DNA of 64,000 nucleotides from Antedon mediterranea. Taxonomy: Eukaryota; Echinodermata; Crinoidea; Comatulida; Antedonidae. Of this stretch, positions 10,481 to 40,091 are shown one piece after another. Both the position numbers and the translations under genes were made by a program. Under the pieces are notes generated by a model. The model searched no databases. It saw only the letters and a program-made list of their open reading frames with translations, and was not told the origin of the DNA. Numbering within the stretch: position 1 is the first letter of the stretch; each line of letters starts with the position of its first letter. Location: positions 4,469,001-4,533,000 of the forward strand of contig NC_092674.1 of the NCBI RefSeq assembly GCF_964355755.1, in the 5' to 3' direction.

Positions 10481-11644
10481 GTTGAGCATCTTTGTTCTTT
10501 GAAACGGATTTCCACCTTTTTGGAGGACAGTGACTTTCACTCATTGGCAAAGTGCCTAAAACATTATTTAAAAAAAAAAAAAAAAAATTGTGTTTGTTCT
10601 AATAATTAAGTTATAATATTAGGAACAGGGATGAATTTCAATTTTAAAGGGGACCAATACAATTTTTTGAATCATGAAATCAATAAATCCATACTAAAGT
10701 ACAGTGAGTTTTGGAGTTCCCCAGTGTACTGTCAACGACACTTGTATGATATCCCAAATAAGGAAGTTGTGATGTCATCAACACTTCATCTTAAGAGACT
10801 GGAGATGATGATGTCATTTCACCAGAAAACAAATATACTTTTATGTATTAATGGGGTCATATTTCTCACCCCTACATCCTGAATTAAGGTATAAAATAGG
10901 TGTACACTCTTAGTGTTAGTTAGTCTGGAGTAGGGATACCTTCCCATTACAATCTTGTTTTTACAAGTCTGTTATTTAATTACATTTGTGGATGGCATAT
11001 TTGTAGTAGTACGGTAAGTCATGTTTTGTTCACCTTCTTGTTTTTAGTTTGTTTTAAATTTAAATTTTTATTTTATATTAACTTGTTTGTATTTTGCATA
11101 ATGATTAATATATCATTATTATATTATAATAATTATTATTATATTATAATGTACAGATATAAATTTGTGCATTATTTTACAGTTATTCCTTTATTGTTTA
11201 CTTTTTGATGTTTATATACTTTGTACCGTATAGTTACTGCACTATTTTAAATTTGTCGATAGAACTGTAGTAAAAACGAAATATATAATATCCCCTCCAT
11301 TATATATAATGTATAGGCTTACTGTTTAATTCTTGCCAAAAGTTTTCAGTTGTGTGCAAACAGCTCACTATGTCAGTCGGTTGGTCAGTCGGTCGGTAAA
11401 AACTAACTCAAATTTAGCGACTGCAGCCATGTACATAGCCTTGTTTTTCTTATAATTTAAGCTAAGTTATCCAACAATCCAATAGTATTTGGAATCTTTT
11501 GAAAAAGACTTGAATAAACAAATCAGGTGGATTTATAGGTGCAGTTTATTAAGATATTTCAGCATTATTTATTGGATTGAATGAACTTTACATATGCTAT
11601 AGAACTATAGAATACTAGTGTTTATATATATATAGAATATCTTT

Positions 11645-11878
11645 CTTCCTGTCCACCCAGGCAGCACTTGCCAACTCATATGCTATGACTTTATCCAAAT
11701 TCCGTCACTTGCACTGATGAAGGGCTAGTGTTGCCCGAAAGCTCTGCTAACTTTTCTGGCTGTTTACTTTATCGTTTTGATTTAGCTTTTCGCTTTTTTT
11801 TTTTTGTATCTCGCCATTGAGACCCAGCCACTGATACCCACAGCATTGTCATTTTTTTCAGTAATTTGCCTTTGGATT
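11645..11878 (+). mobile_element. Short Penelope-like (PLE) insertion with target duplication
   Basis: The insertion is flanked by direct 16-mers tatatagaatatcttt at 11629-11644 and 11879-11894. It contains a hammerhead-type motif followed by ttttctggctgtttacttta, a t-rich run and gacccagccactgatac up to tttggattta. Hammerhead motifs in such terminal segments are known from Penelope-like retroelements, which is the basis of the call. No reverse transcriptase is present, so this is only an end fragment or a non-autonomous derivative. A shorter relative lies at 21506-21631 on the other strand. Confidence 0.6.
11714..11749 (+). ncRNA. Hammerhead-ribozyme-like core
   Basis: Core CTGATGA at 11714-11720; stem II GGGC (11722-11725) pairs with GCCC (11733-11736) around a seven-base loop; GAAA at 11737-11740; stem III AGC (11740-11742) pairs with GCT (11746-11748) around TCT; the U-A cleavage dinucleotide would be 11748-11749. 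One adenine (11721) is unpaired at the base of stem II, and I see no good stem I, so activity is doubtful. Confidence 0.55.
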
Positions 11879-12344
11879 TATATAGAATATCTTTGTGAGT
11901 TTAAAAAGGATAGAGAGGCTTGCTACAGGTGGAATTATCTCTGTATCCACCTTTATAGGTGCAGTTTATTGAGAATATTTGAGCTTTATTTATTTGGTTG
12001 AACTTTACATAATGCTTTAAAGAACTTTACAATACTTGCTTTAGAACTAGAATAATAGTGTTTGTATATATATAATGTCTTTGTGAGTTTAAAAAGTATA
12101 GAGAGGAGGTTTGTTAAAGGTGAAATGATCCTTGTATCCATGAACATCAGGGTATGTTTACTTTTATAGGTTTGTTTGTTTCTCAGCAAGGTGTAAAGAC
12201 CAAGGCTTTTGTACAAGGATAAAGCAAAAGCTTTTAAGTTTTATAAATTGATTCAGTATGGACAGATCTTGTTTAATATCCAAATTAAATGTTTGGTATG
12301 TAACAAAATATGTTACTTGATCATTTAGAATAATAAGGCATTGT

Positions 12345-14589: not shown

Positions 14590-17500
14590 ATGGCATTGAT
14601 GTGGAAGAAAGCAAAAGATATTCTTTTTAACAGTCCCGACCTTGATGCCACAGATGGGAGTGGTTCAAATCTTGAGAGCAGTGATCCTGAATTATGTATC
14701 CAGTTATTGCGAATTCCTTCAGTGAACAATTACAGTGGTTTAAGGAAACGAATTGCCACAGCTGATTCAGAATGGATGCAGAACTTCCTCGAAATGGACG
14801 GGTTGGGCGTGTTGCTAAACACGTTGGAACGGCTCTCGGAACACAAATACTCCGGAATTACTAATGCGTATCTACAGCTTGGAATTGTGGGAGTCATCAA
14901 GGCTATCTTAAACTCTAAAACTGGAATGGAATTTGTTATAAATAATTCTAAAATGACTCGAATGCTGGGACGTGGTAAGTGTGTTTGATTTATATATGGA
15001 TTATGGAATTCAATTTTTTGCATAAATTTACATTTTTCAATTTCTTTAGAAAAATTAATATTTTAATTTATCATGTGAAACCCTGGTGTAAGATATAGTT
15101 GATAAAAATAGTAAAAATTGAATTTAAAAACAAAGTGTCATTGTGTCAACAAAGTGTCACCGTGTCCCAACAAAGTGTCACCGTGTCCCAACAAAGTGTC
15201 ACCGTGTCCCAACAAAGTGTCACCGTGTCCCAAACAAAGTGTCACCATGTCCCAACAAAGTGTCACCATGACCCAACAAAGTGTCACCATGACCCAACAA
15301 AGTGTCACCGTGACCCAACAAAGTGTCACCGTGTCCCAACAAAGTGTCACAGTGTCCCAACAAAGTGTCACCGTGTCCCAACAAAGTGTCACCGTGACCT
15401 AACAAAGTGTCACCGTGTCCCAACAAAGTGTCACCATGACCCAACAAAGTGTCACCATGTCCCAAACAAAGTGTCACCATGTCCCAACAAAGTTTCAACG
15501 TGTCCCAAACAAAGTGTCACCGTGTCCCAAACAAAGTGTCATCATGTCCCAACAAAGTGTCACCGTGTCCCAAACAAAATGTCACCATGACCCAACAAAG
15601 TGTCACCGTGACCCAACAAAGTGTCACCATGTCCCAACAAAGTGTCACCGTGTCCCAACAAAGTGTCACCGTGTCCCAACAAAGTGTCACCATGTCCCAA
15701 CAAAGTGTCACCGTGTCCCATGTCCCCTTGTCCCAAACAAAGTGTCACCATGTCCCAACAAAGTGTCACCGTGTCCCAACAAAGTGTCACCGTGTCCCAA
15801 ACAAAGTGTCATCATGTCCCAACAAAGTGTCATCATGTCCAAACAAAGTGTCACATGTCCCAACAAAGTGTCACCATGTCCCAACAAAATGCCACTGTGT
15901 CCCAACAAAGTGTCACCATGTCCCAACAAAGTGTCATCATGTCCCAACAAAGTGTCACCGTGTCCCAACAAAGTGTCATCATGTCCCAACAAAGTGTCAC
16001 CATGTCCCAACAAAGTATCACTGACGTAAAATTCATGATAAATTGCACCTCTAGTTTGCCGGAAATGTCACTCACTCTATAGTGTGCGCTAGCAAACAGA
16101 GGATTGTAGCCTATAGTATTCCGCCGGTAATAAAACATACGGGATTTTCAGTAAATTACCAATGGTTTATTGAAAGTCAACACTGTAACTAATCCCTTAC
16201 TATTCAATCAAAATGTTATTATACTAATATATTGTTGAAAAATGGATTGCGCATGATATGAAAATGGATTGATGGTGAAACATAACAAAGATACGATCTT
16301 GTCTGGTTATTAGGTATTCATGCAGTGATGAAGCGAAGGATTATTTTTGTAGCGTTCCATTTAAAATAAATTTTGTTACAAAGAAATATTTAGGTTGTGA
16401 AGCTCGTTAAATTCGTTGGCGTCAGCATCACTTCTTTTACCAATTTTAACGATTAAGCTAACATCAAAACAACAACAACAATGATAAAATGCCCTGCAAC
16501 TCTGTAACTATACTTTATGACTAAGCCTATCAAGTTCCGGGTCCGAATGGATATTGTATACGATGAAATGGGACTCAATTTTAATTTAGTGGCAGAAACA
16601 ACATTTTAATAAAATTAAGGGTGTTGCCCGGGCCACTAGGGCAACACCCCTGGGTCCGCCCCTGGTGTCCTAAACAAAATGTCACCGTGTCCTGAACAAA
16701 ATGTCACTGTGTCCCAAACAAAGTGTCACTCTGTCCCAAACAAAATGTCACTGTGTCCCAAACAAAGTGTCACTCTGTCCCAAACAAAGTGTCACTGTCC
16801 CAAACAAAATGTCACCATGTCCCAAATGTGTTTTTACTGTAGTATTCCACATTCGTTTCATGTGAAAGTGTCCCCTGAATAGAAGTGTTCTCGAAATAAG
16901 GACCCAAAAGACTATATATATAAAAGTAAGAAAATATAAAAACTGTACTCAAAATTTTGTTGCGGTTGCCTGATTTGTGTTTATGTTTACTCCTTAATTT
17001 GTAATTATTATTTTGAATTAGGGAACATTTGATTTAGATTTGCCTTATGAAGTATGGTTTTTACATTTTCAGGGTGAATGGTTACTGTTAGGTAACATAC
17101 ATTATATATATCATACCTAATTACAGATGGAAGTAGACTTTATATAATATTATCATAATTACTGTGTACTATCATACAAGTATATATAATTATTAGCTTT
17201 AGCAGGAAACATCAACATTTGACATAAAATTAATGAAAAAAACAAAATATGCTTTTTGTTTTTATATGTAATTTTAAGTTTTGAAATTATTCCAACAGTT
17301 ACTGCAGTAAAAACTTAACTGCAATATAACATATGATTTTAGTTGGTTTCAATGTTGTATAATTTAATTTATTAAGAAAAAATAAACAGTGTGTATGATT
17401 ATCTAAAAAATGCCTGCTAACTAATTTGGTAAACTGTTTCTGAATTCAATGTGCAATAGCTGGCAGTAGAATAATTTTGACATGGTAACTTAAACTTTTC

Positions 17501-20500: not shown

Positions 20501-23500
20501 GAACTTTTAATCAATGTCATAATTCATTACTAGCTTATTACCATAGGATAAACAAATATTACTCTGTTAGGGATTTTCTCCTCCAAGAGGAGAACATACT
20601 ATTTGAGAAAATGTACCAACTTTGAACGCCCCTCCATGTTTAGGGCTTTTCTCCTGCAAGAGGAGAACAGAATTTGAAAAAAACGTACCATGCAATGTTA
20701 TAAATTTACTTAATTTTGTCATTGTCATGCTTGAAATAAAATAAAATAAATATCATGATATCAATACCTCACCATTTAGAAACAATATTGCGTTACATGA
20801 ATGATATTCAGTTTTTTAATAAGCATCCCATTAGTGATTTAATAACAACATAGCAATCAAAATGTCTATTTAAAGTCTATTGTCAAAATAAGATAATAAA
20901 AAACTTAAAATAATACAAGGGTACAGGCTTGTAATAATAATTTTTCATTGCATGCATGATATCCAGTTTTTTAAATAATAATTTGATTATATCATATCCA
21001 TAAAACATATGTAATACAATAGATATACATCCTGTATTGAATTTGTTTAGTATTTACTTTTTAACTACATAATATATGTAAACAAACAAACAAGTAAACA
21101 GGTTTATGTATATTTAATATTCAGAAGATCCAATGAATAATTTCAAATAAAATAAAAACAAGGGTACAGTACTACTCCAAATAAAGAGACAGAACACATT
21201 TAGGAAAATTGAAAAGTTTCAATCCAGTATATTTGATCATATGAGAGTCTTGAAAATGATCATATAGATCGAAATATTAAATATTCTCAATACATAATTT
21301 TTATGAGTACCCTTGTTTTATTTCAAGTATTTTATTAACTTATTTTGGCAAAGACTTTAAATAAACTTTAACTAACTGTCATGCTTGTACAATAACCTAC
21401 AGTATGTACTATTTCAGACACTGAACTCAATCAATCAAATAAACATTTATTTCTTTCATATTCATATTTGAGTAAAACATTATAATTTCTAATATTTTAT
21501 ATATAAATCCAAAGGCAAATTACTGAAAAAAACGACAATGCTGTGGGTATCAGTGGCTGGATCTCAATGGAGATACAAAAAAAAAAGCGAAAAGCTAAAT
21601 CAAAACGATAAAGTAAACAGCCAGAAAAATATAATATTTTATATATATATATTTTTCTTTTTAGAGTTATAATAAGTAAATCATAATGTATGAAAAAAGG
21701 GTGATTCAGTTAATATAAACTGAACTATAACTAAAATAATCAATAATATATTTTATTTCTCAAATAAAAACAAAATACAGAAAACATTTTCTAAAATAAT
21801 AAATAATAGGGATACCCCACTGGAAGTATAAGCTTTAAGATGTGGGGTCCAGGCAACATATTTAAGTATGGTAAGGTAAGAAACATGTAAAAAAACAATA
21901 TAATGATGAGCAAAAAAGACATTTAACTTAACAAATGCAGTTATAATTTAATTTAAAACAGATACATTATTAACTTAAACAATAATAGTAGAAACAAGGT
22001 ATTCATGTAATTTGATATAAAATTAATAATTTTGAGTTCTTCTGGTAGAGAATTTTGGGTTATGGGAAAGTTATATCATGCTTGCCAACCTCCGTATTTA
22101 AGCAATCAAAGCAATACTATTCTTTTCTTTATATTTACAGATTACCAAACAACAACGATATAGATTTAGTTTCATAATTAATGAGCTAAAACAGGATGTC
22201 ATTATTCCGTATAAAGCTTCGTTAATTGGATTTATCAACGCAATACTTATATCGACAGAAAATTTCGACGAACGCAATCGTTTAAGAAATGAATTCATTG
22301 GTTTAAAGATTTTGGATATCCTCACCCAGTTACGGTATATATAATTTGTTGATATGATAGTGAGGAACCTAATGTGATCATCCCTGATATGCTATTCCAA
22401 ATTAATTGCATTTCTTGGTAAATTACAATGTGTAATGAATGAACAAGGCCGTAGCCACCAGTAGTGTTGGTAAGGTTTCAATCTGACCACTTTTTCACAG
22501 AGGTCTTTATAACCCAAAGATTGTTCCATTTTCTTGCGAAAACTGCACCACTTTATTGCTTGTGGCTACATAACTGATGAAATTGTACATACAGTATTCA
22601 TATTGAAGTCTACTAGCATTTTGCGTATGTCAGCCTTTCATAAAAAATATGAATAAAATAATTACAAAATAACTAATTAGGGAAAGCATATCTAAGAAAT
22701 TTACGCTAGGCTCCTCACTAAATTAATTAAAATTGATTATATTTTTTTTGGGCTCTTATTATTCTTATGGTAATATTGGAATTTAAGTCAAATAACTAAA
22801 ATAAATAGATTCTTTCTTCTAATTGAATAATTGTCTTTGTTTAATATTATTTACATATTGCTTGCTTAAAAGTTTAATTTGTGTTAATGAAATGAAATTC
22901 TATTTGAATAATATTAAATTTATATTTAATATTTTAAACTTAACTTTGCTTATTATCAATGTTTAGATTTTATTAATATTTTGATATTAATAATAACTAT
23001 AATTGGCTTAGTATGTCTACATACAATGTTGCAATGCTTTACTTTTTGTTGTGTATATGATGTGGGTTTGATTCCTAATTTGCATGTGATTTACATATAT
23101 ATTACATTAGAATAATGAATGTGTTAACTTCCAAGAATTGTGTTCTTTCAAAAATGGATAGAGGGTGCTATAATGATTTTAAGTCATGTCATTATAACCC
23201 TGAGCATTTTGCTTAGTTGTGTTGGGCATTTTGAAGCATGCTCATCGAAAGTAACCTCCTCACCCTCCTCCAAGTTTTCCTATTACCCACCATGAAAACT
23301 ATTTGGAACCCACTAGTATTGCACTATAGTAACCCATTACTGTAGACCTACTGGCTATTTAAAGCCCAGTAATACGTTTGTTCTTGGCAGTCAACACATT
23401 AATTCTACCATGGAATTATCTTATATATATTTTTTTTATATGTTTTATATTGCTTAAGTCTACTGTTTCATTTGTTAACTCTTTCATGTTCATATTTTTT

Positions 23501-37329: not shown

Positions 37330-38929
37330 AATGCTTAAAGGGGGACTCCGGTTACTGTAATTGTTTAAAGAGATTCAACAGTAATAACATGTGTAAAGTA
37401 ATATAAGTAAAGGAACATTCCATTTAACATTTTCAGAGAGCTAGTTGCAATATTGTAAGAATTTGATATGATTATTTTATTTTGTATGATTTTATATTGT
37501 TATTGTACAGTTAATGATGAAATGTATAGTTTTATTGTAATTTATTCATAAATCAATATCAATACATATATTTTAGTTAAGTGCAAAACAACATAAAAAT
37601 CACTTTAGTAATCGTGCCGGCGTTGAGCCCTGTTTTAGCCGACAACCCGCAGGTGATCGGGATAGCATATATATGACAAATCTAGCAGATTCTCTGTACA
37701 ATATCTATGATTTTTCCGGTATCATAGGTGGATTGTGTAACATACGTATCACATGTTACGTCTGTATCATACAAGCGCAACATATACATCACATGTTAGC
37801 CTGTATCATACAAGCGCAACATATACACGTGACATTGTACTATTACAAAATGTACCTATTATGATAATGGCGAACGAAATGCTAAAATCACCGCTTAGTC
37901 GAATAATGCTCTTGAATAGAGAAACAGTAAATTTATGACGTTATCGTAGATAGTACCTACCAGTAAATGTATGCATCTAGTTGTCTATTGAATAACAATT
38001 TGCTCTTTAACATACGTTTTTTAATATTTTGTATAAATGAGGTCGACTAATAAAAATGCCTGCAATTTTAAGCAATAAATAATATTATGAATACAAAATC
38101 AACGTAAAATCTATTTTGTAAGCCTATCGTATTCATTTCATTCACATTTATTTGAAACAGTCCAAGAAAAAAGAATACATTTACAATAAGTTAAATGGTA
38201 TTAATAAAAGGAGTTAATTGTGAAGCTGTTTGGGTGAGTACAGTAGGCCTAGTACTAATTTTATGTTTGTTGATTTTTGTTTGTTATAGCCTACATGACA
38301 TTTCCTTTTTTATATTAGTCCACCAGTCGACGTTTCGATTTTTGTCTGAAAATACAGTTTAGTTTACAAGCTCAAGATTAAAGGTAGTATACGTATGAAA
38401 CGCTATATGTGCTAAAATGTTTATCTTTTTACTAATATTAAGTCAAAATTCGTCTGGAACCCAGATTCAGAATATACATGGCATAAAACGAAGCCATACA
38501 AGAAACAATGTCGCAGTGCTGTAGTTATATCCCAATTGGTATTTCAATAGATGAAATACGTACTGGTAAGCTACTGTATTATTGTTATTGCGATATCAAC
38601 ACCATTCATGCATCACCATCCTGTATATTCTTTATACTTAGTTCATTGAATACAGTACATAGTTCGTTACGCATTGTAGATCCCAAGGATCTGATAATAA
38701 TGGATATTTTTGTTATTTAAATATACTTTTTAGTTCACCAGCATCTTAAAATCGGCAGATTTCACAAACCGTATTGTAATTTTGATTTCACTGCATGTAT
38801 TATTGCGACTTGTAAGCCTATATGGTAGGCCAACGCCATGGGTTGTATGTTTCGGCAAAAATAACAACTTATGTGCCGTGTATAATCAGTGTTCGTGGTA
38901 AGTTTAGTTTGAAATAGGTTTTAACTTAA
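37330..38929. other. Intergenic stretch
   Basis: No gene seen. It holds the repeat related to 33812 (about 37720-37864) and a fragment near 38130-38200 (catttcattcacatttattt) resembling a LINE 3' tail. Confidence 0.5.
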
Positions 38930-39350
38930 CGTTCGTGGCACTGCGTCTGCTGTTGTTATACTGCGTTTAGGTTTGTGGTACTGTGTCGTTTGTGGCAATA
39001 TGTCGTTCGTGGAACTATTTGTGGCACCGTGTTTGTCGTTTGTGGGACTATGTCCTTCGTGGAACTATTTGTGGCACCGTGTTTGTCGTTTGTGGCACTA
39101 TTTGTGGCACCGTGTTTGTCGTTTGTGGCACTATTTGTGGCAATATGTCGTTCGTGAAACTATTTGTGGCACCGTGTTTGTCGTTTGTGGCACTATTTGT
39201 GGCACTATGTCGTTTGTGGCAATATGTCGTTCGTGGCACTATTTGTGGCACCGTGTTTGTCGTTTGTGGCACTGTGTTTTCCATTTGTGGCACTGCGTTT
39301 ACAATTTGTGGCACTGCGTTTACCATTTGTGGCACTGATTTTACCATTTG
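38930..39350 (+). repeat. G/T-rich minisatellite
   Basis: Alternating units cgtttgtggcactatttgtg and gcaccgtgtttgt, about 16-18 bp each, more than 20 in all, decaying towards the right into ttaccatttgtggcactg. Open frames on both strands are by-products. Confidence 0.9.
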
Positions 39351-40091
39351 AGTGCTGTTTTTACCGTTTGAGGCACTCTTCTTGCCGTTTGAAACCCGTT
39401 TTTGCCGTTTTGGCTTGAGTAACTGTGAATATATTCTATAAATAACTCCTTCCCCCCACCCACACACAAATAAACGTCCCGTTTCCATAATATGAGATTC
39501 ACTCTATATGGTCACGAATTTAAAACGAGAGAAATTAATTCTATCTTCGATTTTTTTAAGTTGTTTATTGAGCACTGGGTAGGCCTAATTTCTTAACAAA
39601 TTAATCGTATCGCCTCTAGTGTGCAGCGTGTCCGGTGATTCAGTCTGATTACCAAAACAATTAAGCTTCTTGTGAATAATTATACCCTTCCGCGAGGGTA
39701 CGAGCGAGACCTTGTTGAGCTTACAATGTAATGTCTTTTATGGCTGTTTCCTGCTTACGTGTACAATAGCTTAATGTAATAACAATATTTTTAACTGTCA
39801 ATTATTGACTGACTTGACCTGTATTTTATTGAATATCTGAATTTTATGAAAACATTTTCGAAAGTAATCGCGCTCTTCGACGATCGAACACATCAATCGC
39901 GCAAAGAAAGTGCGCATAGTGTGAAATAGAAGAAAACACACGTTGGGTACGTTGGATTTTTATTATGCACATGCTACCGTATTTCTTATACAAACACTGC
40001 TGTTGAGCATATAACAATGAATTATGAATAATCATATTGTTGTTTTTTAAGCTGGCAGAGTAATAGGACCAGAAACAAGATTGCTGTCGGT

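What the first reader, a model, noticed from the sequence alone, without database searches (positions are those of the whole stretch)
11629..11894. Hammerhead-type core inside a short insertion with a 16-bp target duplication and an empty paralogous site
The insert 11645-11878 lies between direct 16-mers tatatagaatatcttt. The neighbouring duplicate at about 12063-12090 has the same flanks joined without an insert, a natural pre-insertion site. The insert has CTGATGA, a four-pair stem II, GAAA and a three-pair stem III with a UA cleavage site. Hammerhead motifs in terminal repeats of Penelope-like elements are established; here the piece is only 234 bp with no polymerase, so it may be a non-autonomous, ribozyme-bearing family. 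The missing stem I is the weak point.
Basis: partly seen in the sequence, partly recalled or inferred. Interest (0 to 1): 0.7.

Follow-up and report, generated by a model that had tools for sequence, protein, structure and literature searches.

The report
Truncated Penelope element carrying minimal hammerhead
The 234-base insert is one of many broken-off tails of an ordinary self-copying mobile element (a Penelope-like retroelement) that carries the small hammerhead-type RNA motif such elements are known to have; it is a clean but unsurprising example.

Summary
An exact 16-bp direct repeat flanks 11645-11878, and a neighbouring duplicate shows the empty site.

The insert is not a family of its own. 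It is the 5'-truncated 3' end of a Penelope-like element (PLE1). Relatives in the same genome continue upstream into a GIY-YIG endonuclease and a reverse transcriptase, and two fetched loci carry the terminal repeat on both sides. The core pattern occurs 1,083 times genome-wide (reversed control 1).

With cleavage at 11744|11745 a minimal type-I hammerhead can be drawn: stem I GCA/UGC, an extra A after A9, stem II GGGC/GCCC, and a palindromic, loopless stem III AGCU. A second PLE family (35% protein identity) has the same layout at the same distance after its stop codon, with different stem I and stem III letters that still pair. This fits the minimal hammerheads reported in PLEs. Cleavage is untested, and PLE1's stem I is weak. 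Rfam's models report neither motif, so their silence is uninformative.

The genome also holds a canonical-hammerhead retrozyme family and a tRNA-Asp SINE. Their 3' ends resemble PLE ends, which hints (unproven) that PLEs mobilise them.

The parts
11629..11644 (.). left copy of the target-site duplication TATATAGAATATCTTT
   Evidence: exact match to 11879-11894
11645..11878 (+). 5'-truncated 3' end of PLE1 (last part of its terminal repeat / 3' UTR)
   Evidence: 44 matches in the genome, of 2,054 first-look candidates only 40 scored; 40 copies aligned, all with the same 3' end region; continues upstream into GIY-YIG and RT in other loci
11711..11713 (+). stem I, 5' strand (GCA)
   Evidence: descriptor scan; in the minimum-free-energy fold of the 51-nt motif
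11714..11720 (+). hammerhead core C3-A9 (CUGAUGA)
   Evidence: sequence; pattern count 531 + 552 genome-wide, reversed control 1 + 0
11721..11721 (+). extra A between A9 and stem II (the place of A10 in the CChMVd plus hammerhead)
   Evidence: sequence; CChMVd parallel read in passages of PMC3705267
11722..11736 (+). stem II GGGC/GCCC with loop UAGUGUU
   Evidence: lineage L082-L084 has GGAC/GUCC instead
11737..11739 (+). G12-A13-A14 of the core
   Evidence: sequence
11740..11743 (+). palindromic, loopless stem III AGCU (A15.1 to U16.1)
   Evidence: palindrome ACAUGU at the same place in PLE2
11744..11744 (+). C17; proposed cleavage 11744|11745 (inferred, not tested)
   Evidence: descriptor scan
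11745..11750 (+). stem I, 3' strand UGC, then UAA (UU/AA could extend it across a one-base bulge)
   Evidence: the bulged extension computes as less stable (-8.3 against -10.1 kcal/mol)
11879..11894 (.). right copy of the target-site duplication; its TATATA overlaps the element's (TA)n tail
12037..12106 (.). neighbouring duplicate with flanks joined and no insert: natural empty site

Best explanation
The insert is a copy of a Penelope-like retroelement (PLE1) that was truncated at its 5' side during insertion. The PLE protein (RT plus GIY-YIG endonuclease) cut an AT-rich site and copied the element's RNA from its 3' end, TTTGGATT next to (TA)n; copying stopped early, leaving 234 bp with a 10-16 bp target duplication. 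The piece retains the element's minimal type-I hammerhead: UUGCA-CUGAUGA-A-GGGC/GCCC-GAA-AGCU-C|UGC. Because stem III is a loopless palindrome, cleavage would most likely need two tandem copies of the terminal repeat pairing as a dimer, or help from the PLE protein; a lone, silent copy such as this one is most likely a fossil. Shown here: membership in PLE1, truncation, duplication, empty site, core and pairings. Inferred: the insertion chemistry, dimer action and any cleavage.
For: 40 copies align with one 3' end and varied 5' edges; by the script, 23 of 40 have a direct repeat of 10 nt or more at the edges (6 pure TA runs, 7 a TA run plus one T, 10 with other letters by my reading), 12 could not be judged because the fetched piece began inside the element, 5 had none. 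L053 has two direct terminal repeats (612 bp, 98.7%) around RT and GIY-YIG frames; Pfam RVT_1 E 1.1e-9 and GIY-YIG E 1.1e-4 in L054, GIY-YIG E 3.2e-5 in L053. Core pattern 1,083, reversed control 1. The minimum-free-energy fold of the 51-nt PLE1 motif contains stems I and II (-11.1 kcal/mol). Second family PLE2 (35% identity over 501 aa of RT-EN): core, stem II and stem III letters present in 14 of 14 fetched loci (12 exact over 43 nt, L139 with 1 and L145 with 3 differences in the stem I strands), core 229 nt after its stop against 242 in PLE1, stem I pairs in 6 of its first 7 positions. Core kept and flanks shuffled: PLE1 293 of 20,000, PLE2 419 of 20,000.
Against: PLE1's stem I is only 3 contiguous pairs. 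No Rfam hammerhead match at E<=10. PLE2's own minimum-free-energy fold (-8.9) is a competing hairpin that uses the core letters, and the PLE1 dimer's minimum fold (-24.2) is another duplex, while the drawn double hammerhead evaluates at -19.2. Conservation is modest: motif 93.0% against 86.1% in flanks, 41st of 344 windows, in 14 copies of which 12 reach the motif and three belong to one passively copied insertion. C3 is lost in that passive repeat and in L063. Only 6 genome copies have a perfect UUGCA/UGCAA stem I, no more than random mutation would give. No single fetched PLE1 copy was shown with one unbroken full-length frame, so 'autonomous' rests on domain content.
Confidence: 0.85

Rival explanations
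1. A non-autonomous, ribozyme-bearing 234-bp family in its own right.
For: Many short copies exist. Lineage L082-L084 joins the last ~207 nt of PLE1 to a long unrelated repeat without an RT frame in the stretches seen, and L082 and L083 differ beyond the TA run.
Against: The 5' edge of the window copy is not a family boundary: most aligned copies run past it, some into the endonuclease frame. L082-L084 share more than 3 kb upstream, so they are a different unit.
Confidence: 0.05
2. The motif descends from a PLE hammerhead or resembles one but acts as a plain RNA hairpin, for instance a signal for the PLE protein, and does not cleave.
For: Stem II is its best-kept part (96% block) with a GGAC/GUCC lineage. 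In the Anolis PLE, hammerhead mutants did not affect insertion in vitro (PMC11167929, section read). PLE1's stem I is weak.
Against: Core letters, UH site, palindromic stem III and stem I pairing are all kept in PLE2 with different stem letters, more than a plain hairpin needs.
Confidence: 0.3
3. The hammerhead resemblance is chance in AT-rich repeats.
For: A 3-bp stem I at some geometry appears in 5,322 of 20,000 flank shuffles when the core is kept.
Against: 0 of 20,000 full shuffles; 0 in 60 x 128 kb Markov sequence against one window hit; same layout in PLE2.
Confidence: 0.05
4. The insert is a metazoan retrozyme monomer.
For: Size near 234 bp; a hammerhead-type core; a genuine retrozyme-like family exists in this genome.
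Against: No sequence shared with that family beyond short motifs: the retrozyme query gives no window match. PLE1 runs into RT-EN. The motif is minimal, not canonical.
Confidence: 0.02

Closest known systems
Penelope-like elements of the GIY-YIG kind (Penelope/Poseidon/Neptune type; clade not determined here)
   Same: RT and GIY-YIG domains, direct pseudo-LTRs, 5'-truncated copies, AT-rich targets, hammerhead core in the terminal repeat.
   Different: Core lies about 240 nt after the stop codon; in the Anolis element PAc the hammerhead straddles the start codon (PMC11167929, section 3 part 2 read). Clade untested: no tree was built.
Minimal type-I hammerheads of PLEs and Terminons (Cervera and de la Pena 2014; Lunse et al. 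2017; neither paper was held, known here from reviews and reference lists)
   Same: CUGAUGA/GAAA core, helix III without loop or absent, no evident loop-loop partner; described as minimal variants lacking helix III (passages of PMC7761336, PMC6155905).
   Different: Stem III letters AGCU and ACAUGU, and an extra base after A9. Whether published PLE hammerheads have that base could not be checked.
CChMVd plus-strand hammerhead
   Same: Extra A between A9 and stem II (passages of PMC3705267).
   Different: A viroid ribozyme with full helices.
Metazoan non-LTR retrozymes (PMC7229834, passages read)
   Same: Short hammerhead-bearing repeats in the same genome.
   Different: The window insert is not in tandem, its hammerhead is minimal, and it belongs to a coding PLE.

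Membership tests
Penelope-like element | reverse transcriptase plus GIY-YIG endonuclease in contiguous relatives | tested here: met
   Pfam RVT_1 and GIY-YIG in L054, GIY-YIG in L053; the window copy itself has neither, being truncated
Penelope-like element | terminal repeats in direct orientation (pLTR) | tested here: met
   L053 359-970 and 3829-4440, 98.7%; the insert's sequence occurs twice in L053 and twice in L054
Penelope-like element | 5' truncation and variable target duplications in AT-rich DNA | tested here: met
Penelope-like element | one unbroken reading frame in an active copy | tested here: inconclusive
   L053 and L054 each read in more than one frame; an open frame of 650 aa is reported at C4:64515 but was not read
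Minimal PLE hammerhead | core CUGANGA, GAAA and UH site | tested here: met
Minimal PLE hammerhead | helix III collapsed or loopless | tested here: met
   AGCU in PLE1, ACAUGU in PLE2
Minimal PLE hammerhead | stem I next to the core | tested here: inconclusive
   PLE1 3 contiguous pairs; PLE2 6 of the first 7 positions
Minimal PLE hammerhead | match to Rfam hammerhead models | tested here: not met
   no hammerhead among matches at gathering or E<=10; PLE2 is missed too, so the models are not a fair test of minimal forms. The whole-genome search with RF00163 found nothing, in its control genomes neither
Minimal PLE hammerhead | self-cleavage (as dimer) | not testable with these tools
   bench assay needed
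Metazoan retrozyme | canonical type-I hammerhead in tandem repeats of 150-450 bp, no coding partner | tested here: not met
   the insert is part of a coding PLE

The most novel reading that the evidence does not exclude
In this genome the PLE machinery mobilises not only its own RNA but also a canonical-hammerhead retrozyme and a tRNA-Asp SINE, recognising a common 3' terminus (roughly UUUGCCU/UGCAG, then UUKG-AU, then UAUAUA) at AT-rich targets. Retrozyme insertions end not at the ribozyme cleavage site but 12 nt beyond it, at GATTGGAT joined to (AT)n, the place where a PLE-like terminus lies.
Probability: 0.3. Interest if true: 0.7.

Novelty: new member of a known kind. Interest (0 to 1): 0.35.

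Why it matters
The finding itself adds two PLE families from one genome with the minimal hammerhead layout and shows that Rfam's models do not report such forms, so counts based on them are too low. The two families keep the pairing with different letters, which argues that the ribozyme form, not just a hairpin, was kept. If the shared 3' ends with the retrozyme and the SINE are real, they make directly testable the open proposal that PLEs mobilise metazoan retrozymes, which the passages read (PMC7229834, PMC7761336) rest on shared hammerheads, tandem occurrence and co-existence.

Tried and rejected
Rfam scans as the deciding test: rejected, because PLE2's better motif is missed as well. Whole-genome search with RF00163: no match, 73 of 33,051 candidates scored, controls silent too, so uninformative.

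C3-to-A 'subfamily' (L056-L062, L064, L068) as evidence against ribozyme need: rejected, because L056 and the other eight copies stay at least 95% identical beyond the PLE tail, so this is one insertion copied inside a larger repeat.

Perfect stem I as ancestral state: not supported; 6 copies genome-wide.

Pattern CTGAYGA...CGAAACGTC for further PLE hammerheads: 9 places against 3 in the reversed control. I saw no PLE protein in the frames of 100 aa or more and no Rfam hammerhead; two small repeat groups remain unexplained. Pattern TTTGCCT..TTTG..ATTTATATA: badly written, misses PLE1's own end; 21 matches, not used.

Tail comparison: PLE1-retrozyme 15 of 5,000 shuffles reach the score (22 of 4,000), PLE1-SINE 163 of 5,000 (127 of 4,000), PLE1-PLE2 28 of 4,000, SINE-retrozyme 58 of 5,000 (45 of 4,000); PLE2-retrozyme 437 of 4,000 and PLE2-SINE 361 of 4,000, not significant. 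The genomic null (2 or 3 of 375 TA-flanking 22-mers for PLE1) was made after removing 74 look-alike tails, which favours the result. No correction for multiple pairs.

The first retrozyme set was chosen with a query that included the TA tail and is biased; counts given here use the set.

Full report
What was checked. The insert 11645-11878 lies between two exact copies of TATATAGAATATCTTT. The flanks, joined in a script, align to the neighbouring duplicate without the insert (77%; repeat blocks).

What it is. A whole-genome search with 11629-11894 gave 44 matches; the tool scored 40 of 2,054 candidates. Forty copies aligned share the 3' end TTTGCCTTTGGATT followed by a TA run or AT-rich DNA, and differ at the 5' side. 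Two fetched copies (L002, L004) share a further ~400 bp upstream, and in L042-L045 the same stretch is the end of a long frame with RT and GIY-YIG letters. L053 holds two direct repeats of 612 bp (98.7%) around these frames; in L054 the insert's sequence also occurs on both sides. Pfam confirms RVT_1 (E 1.1e-9) and GIY-YIG (E 1.1e-4) in L054 and GIY-YIG (E 3.2e-5) in L053. The insert is therefore a 5'-truncated end of a Penelope-like element, PLE1. By script, 23 of 40 copies have a direct repeat of 10 nt or more at their edges; in 12 the 5' edge lay outside the fetched piece; 5 had none. Ten of the 23 are not simple TA runs, by my reading. A second PLE1 fragment lies in the window at 21498-21628, minus strand.

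The hammerhead. A descriptor scan found another register: stem III is the loopless palindrome AGCU (11740-11743), cleavage is at 11744|11745, and stem I is GCA/UGC. Stem II is GGGC/GCCC. The extra A sits where the CChMVd plus hammerhead has its A10, which lowers trans cleavage only moderately (passages of PMC3705267). The minimum-free-energy fold of the 51-nt motif contains stems I and II (-11.1). The dimer's minimum fold is a different duplex (-24.2; drawn double hammerhead -19.2). Chance tests are; the descriptor was written after the motif was seen.

Rfam. No hammerhead reached gathering in the window or E<=10 near the insert. The same holds at E<=1 for three loci of PLE2, so these models do not report minimal forms. 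The genome search with RF00163 gave nothing, also in its controls.

Comparative test. A second PLE family surfaced beside a retrozyme copy (L100). A protein search gave 86 matches, 33 of them at 100% over 63-64 aa, so it is young. Its RT-EN is 35% identical to PLE1 over 501 aa (E 1.5e-96). All 14 fetched loci hold UUUUCAC-CUGAUGA-U-GGGC-UAU-GCCC-GAA-ACAUGU-C-GUUAAAA or a close form: 12 exact over 43 nt, L139 with one and L145 with three differences; L148 and L149 overlap, so the loci are not all independent. The core starts 229 nt after the stop codon, against 242 in PLE1. Stem I differs in letters but pairs in 6 of the first 7 positions; stem III is another palindrome. With the core kept and the flanks shuffled, PLE2's pairing is reached in 419 of 20,000 trials and PLE1's in 293 of 20,000. 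PLE2's own minimum fold is a competing hairpin that uses core letters, which is a point against simple folding.

Conservation. Among 14 copies chosen by the endonuclease only, of which 12 reach the motif, identity is 93.0% in the motif and 86.1% in the flanks, 41st of 344 windows; three of them are one passively copied insertion. This is weak support. A GGAC/GUCC lineage (L082-L084) pairs again in stem II but is one lineage: its three copies share more than 3 kb upstream.

Literature. Reviews state that available PLE sequences carry hammerhead motifs, usually minimal ones lacking helix III, of unknown role (passages of PMC6155905 and PMC7761336). In the Anolis PLE the hammerhead cleaved only with the protein present, and dead mutants did not change insertion in vitro (PMC11167929, section 3 part 2). 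The two primary papers (doi 10.1093/molbev/msu232; PMC5785218) are not held; I know them from reference lists. So PLE1's motif is a further case of a known kind.

Mechanism. Shown: truncation, duplication, terminal repeats, coding domains, core and pairings. Inferred: target cutting by the GIY-YIG domain at AT-rich DNA, copying from the 3' end, early stop, and cleavage, if any, in tandem transcripts where two AGCU palindromes form one helix III.

The other families. L041:1199-1272 matches Rfam Hammerhead_HH9 (33.0 bits, gathering 52, E 8.9e-7 on 301 b) and belongs to a short repeat family, in places tandem (three units in L089, 25.9-28.8 bits), like metazoan retrozymes. A search with an interior 86-nt piece gave 43 rows (40 of 211 candidates scored); 42 rows were covered by fetched loci (C7:12183 was not). 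These held 46 units: 6 run into the next tandem unit, 2 were cut by the locus end, and of the 38 single ends 37 run through to GATTG or further, 23 of them straight into at least three AT units (its script's tandem counter failed and the tandem cases were recounted by eye). The end is 12 nt past the cleavage site GTC|TGCAGATTGGAT. L130 has a 16-bp duplication. In L103 an inverted PLE1 end and a retrozyme are joined head to head without TA between them, as if both RNAs had been copied in one event; no duplication proves it. The tRNA-Asp SINE (ARAGORN: 11 genes in 4 of 5 loci) ends TTTGCCT-N6-TTTATATA in many copies. Tail scores are suggestive for PLE1-retrozyme and marginal for PLE1-SINE; PLE2 with either is not significant. 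Two LINE-like elements of the window (by my reading of their frames) end in GAATGAATGA repeats instead. Neither of two searches listed a paper whose title or abstract shows a PLE-mobilised SINE; only listings were seen.

Noticed in passing
L041:1199-1272; L076-L081, L089, L096-L132: High-copy short family with a canonical hammerhead (Rfam HH9, 33.0 bits, below gathering), partly tandem, 3' ends fixed at GATTGGAT next to (AT)n, 12 nt past the cleavage site.
   Followed up: partly
L041:1-740, L008, L051, L052: tRNA-Asp(ATC)-headed SINE in tandem and dispersed copies, 3' end TTTGCCT..TTTATATA like PLE1's end.
   Followed up: partly
L103:164-490 (retrozyme orientation): Inverted PLE1 3' end joined head to head to a retrozyme with a few letters of microhomology and no TA run between; looks like one insertion event from two RNAs.
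   Followed up: partly
L136-L149: Second PLE family, 33 of 86 matches identical over 63-64 aa, with a well-paired minimal hammerhead.
   Followed up: yes
L082-L084 with L150-L152: Long repeat (more than 3 kb shared, no RT-like frame seen in L150-L152 at 70 aa or more) that ends with the last ~207 nt of PLE1; L082 and L083 differ beyond the TA run.
   Followed up: partly
window 21498-21628, minus strand: Second PLE1 3' fragment in the window, 98.5% to L053.
   Followed up: no
L090-L095: Two small repeat groups with CTGAYGA, one extra base, stem, GAAACGTC; 9 genome places against 3 in the reversed control; no Rfam hammerhead.
   Followed up: partly
L051, L052, L078: PLE1 ends in inverted, tail-to-tail pairs, with or without a TA run between.
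   Followed up: no
window 15099-16082 and 38925-39503: Repetitive stretches open in several frames (QSVTVSQ-like and CGTICGT-like repeats), probably tandem repeats rather than genes.
   Followed up: no
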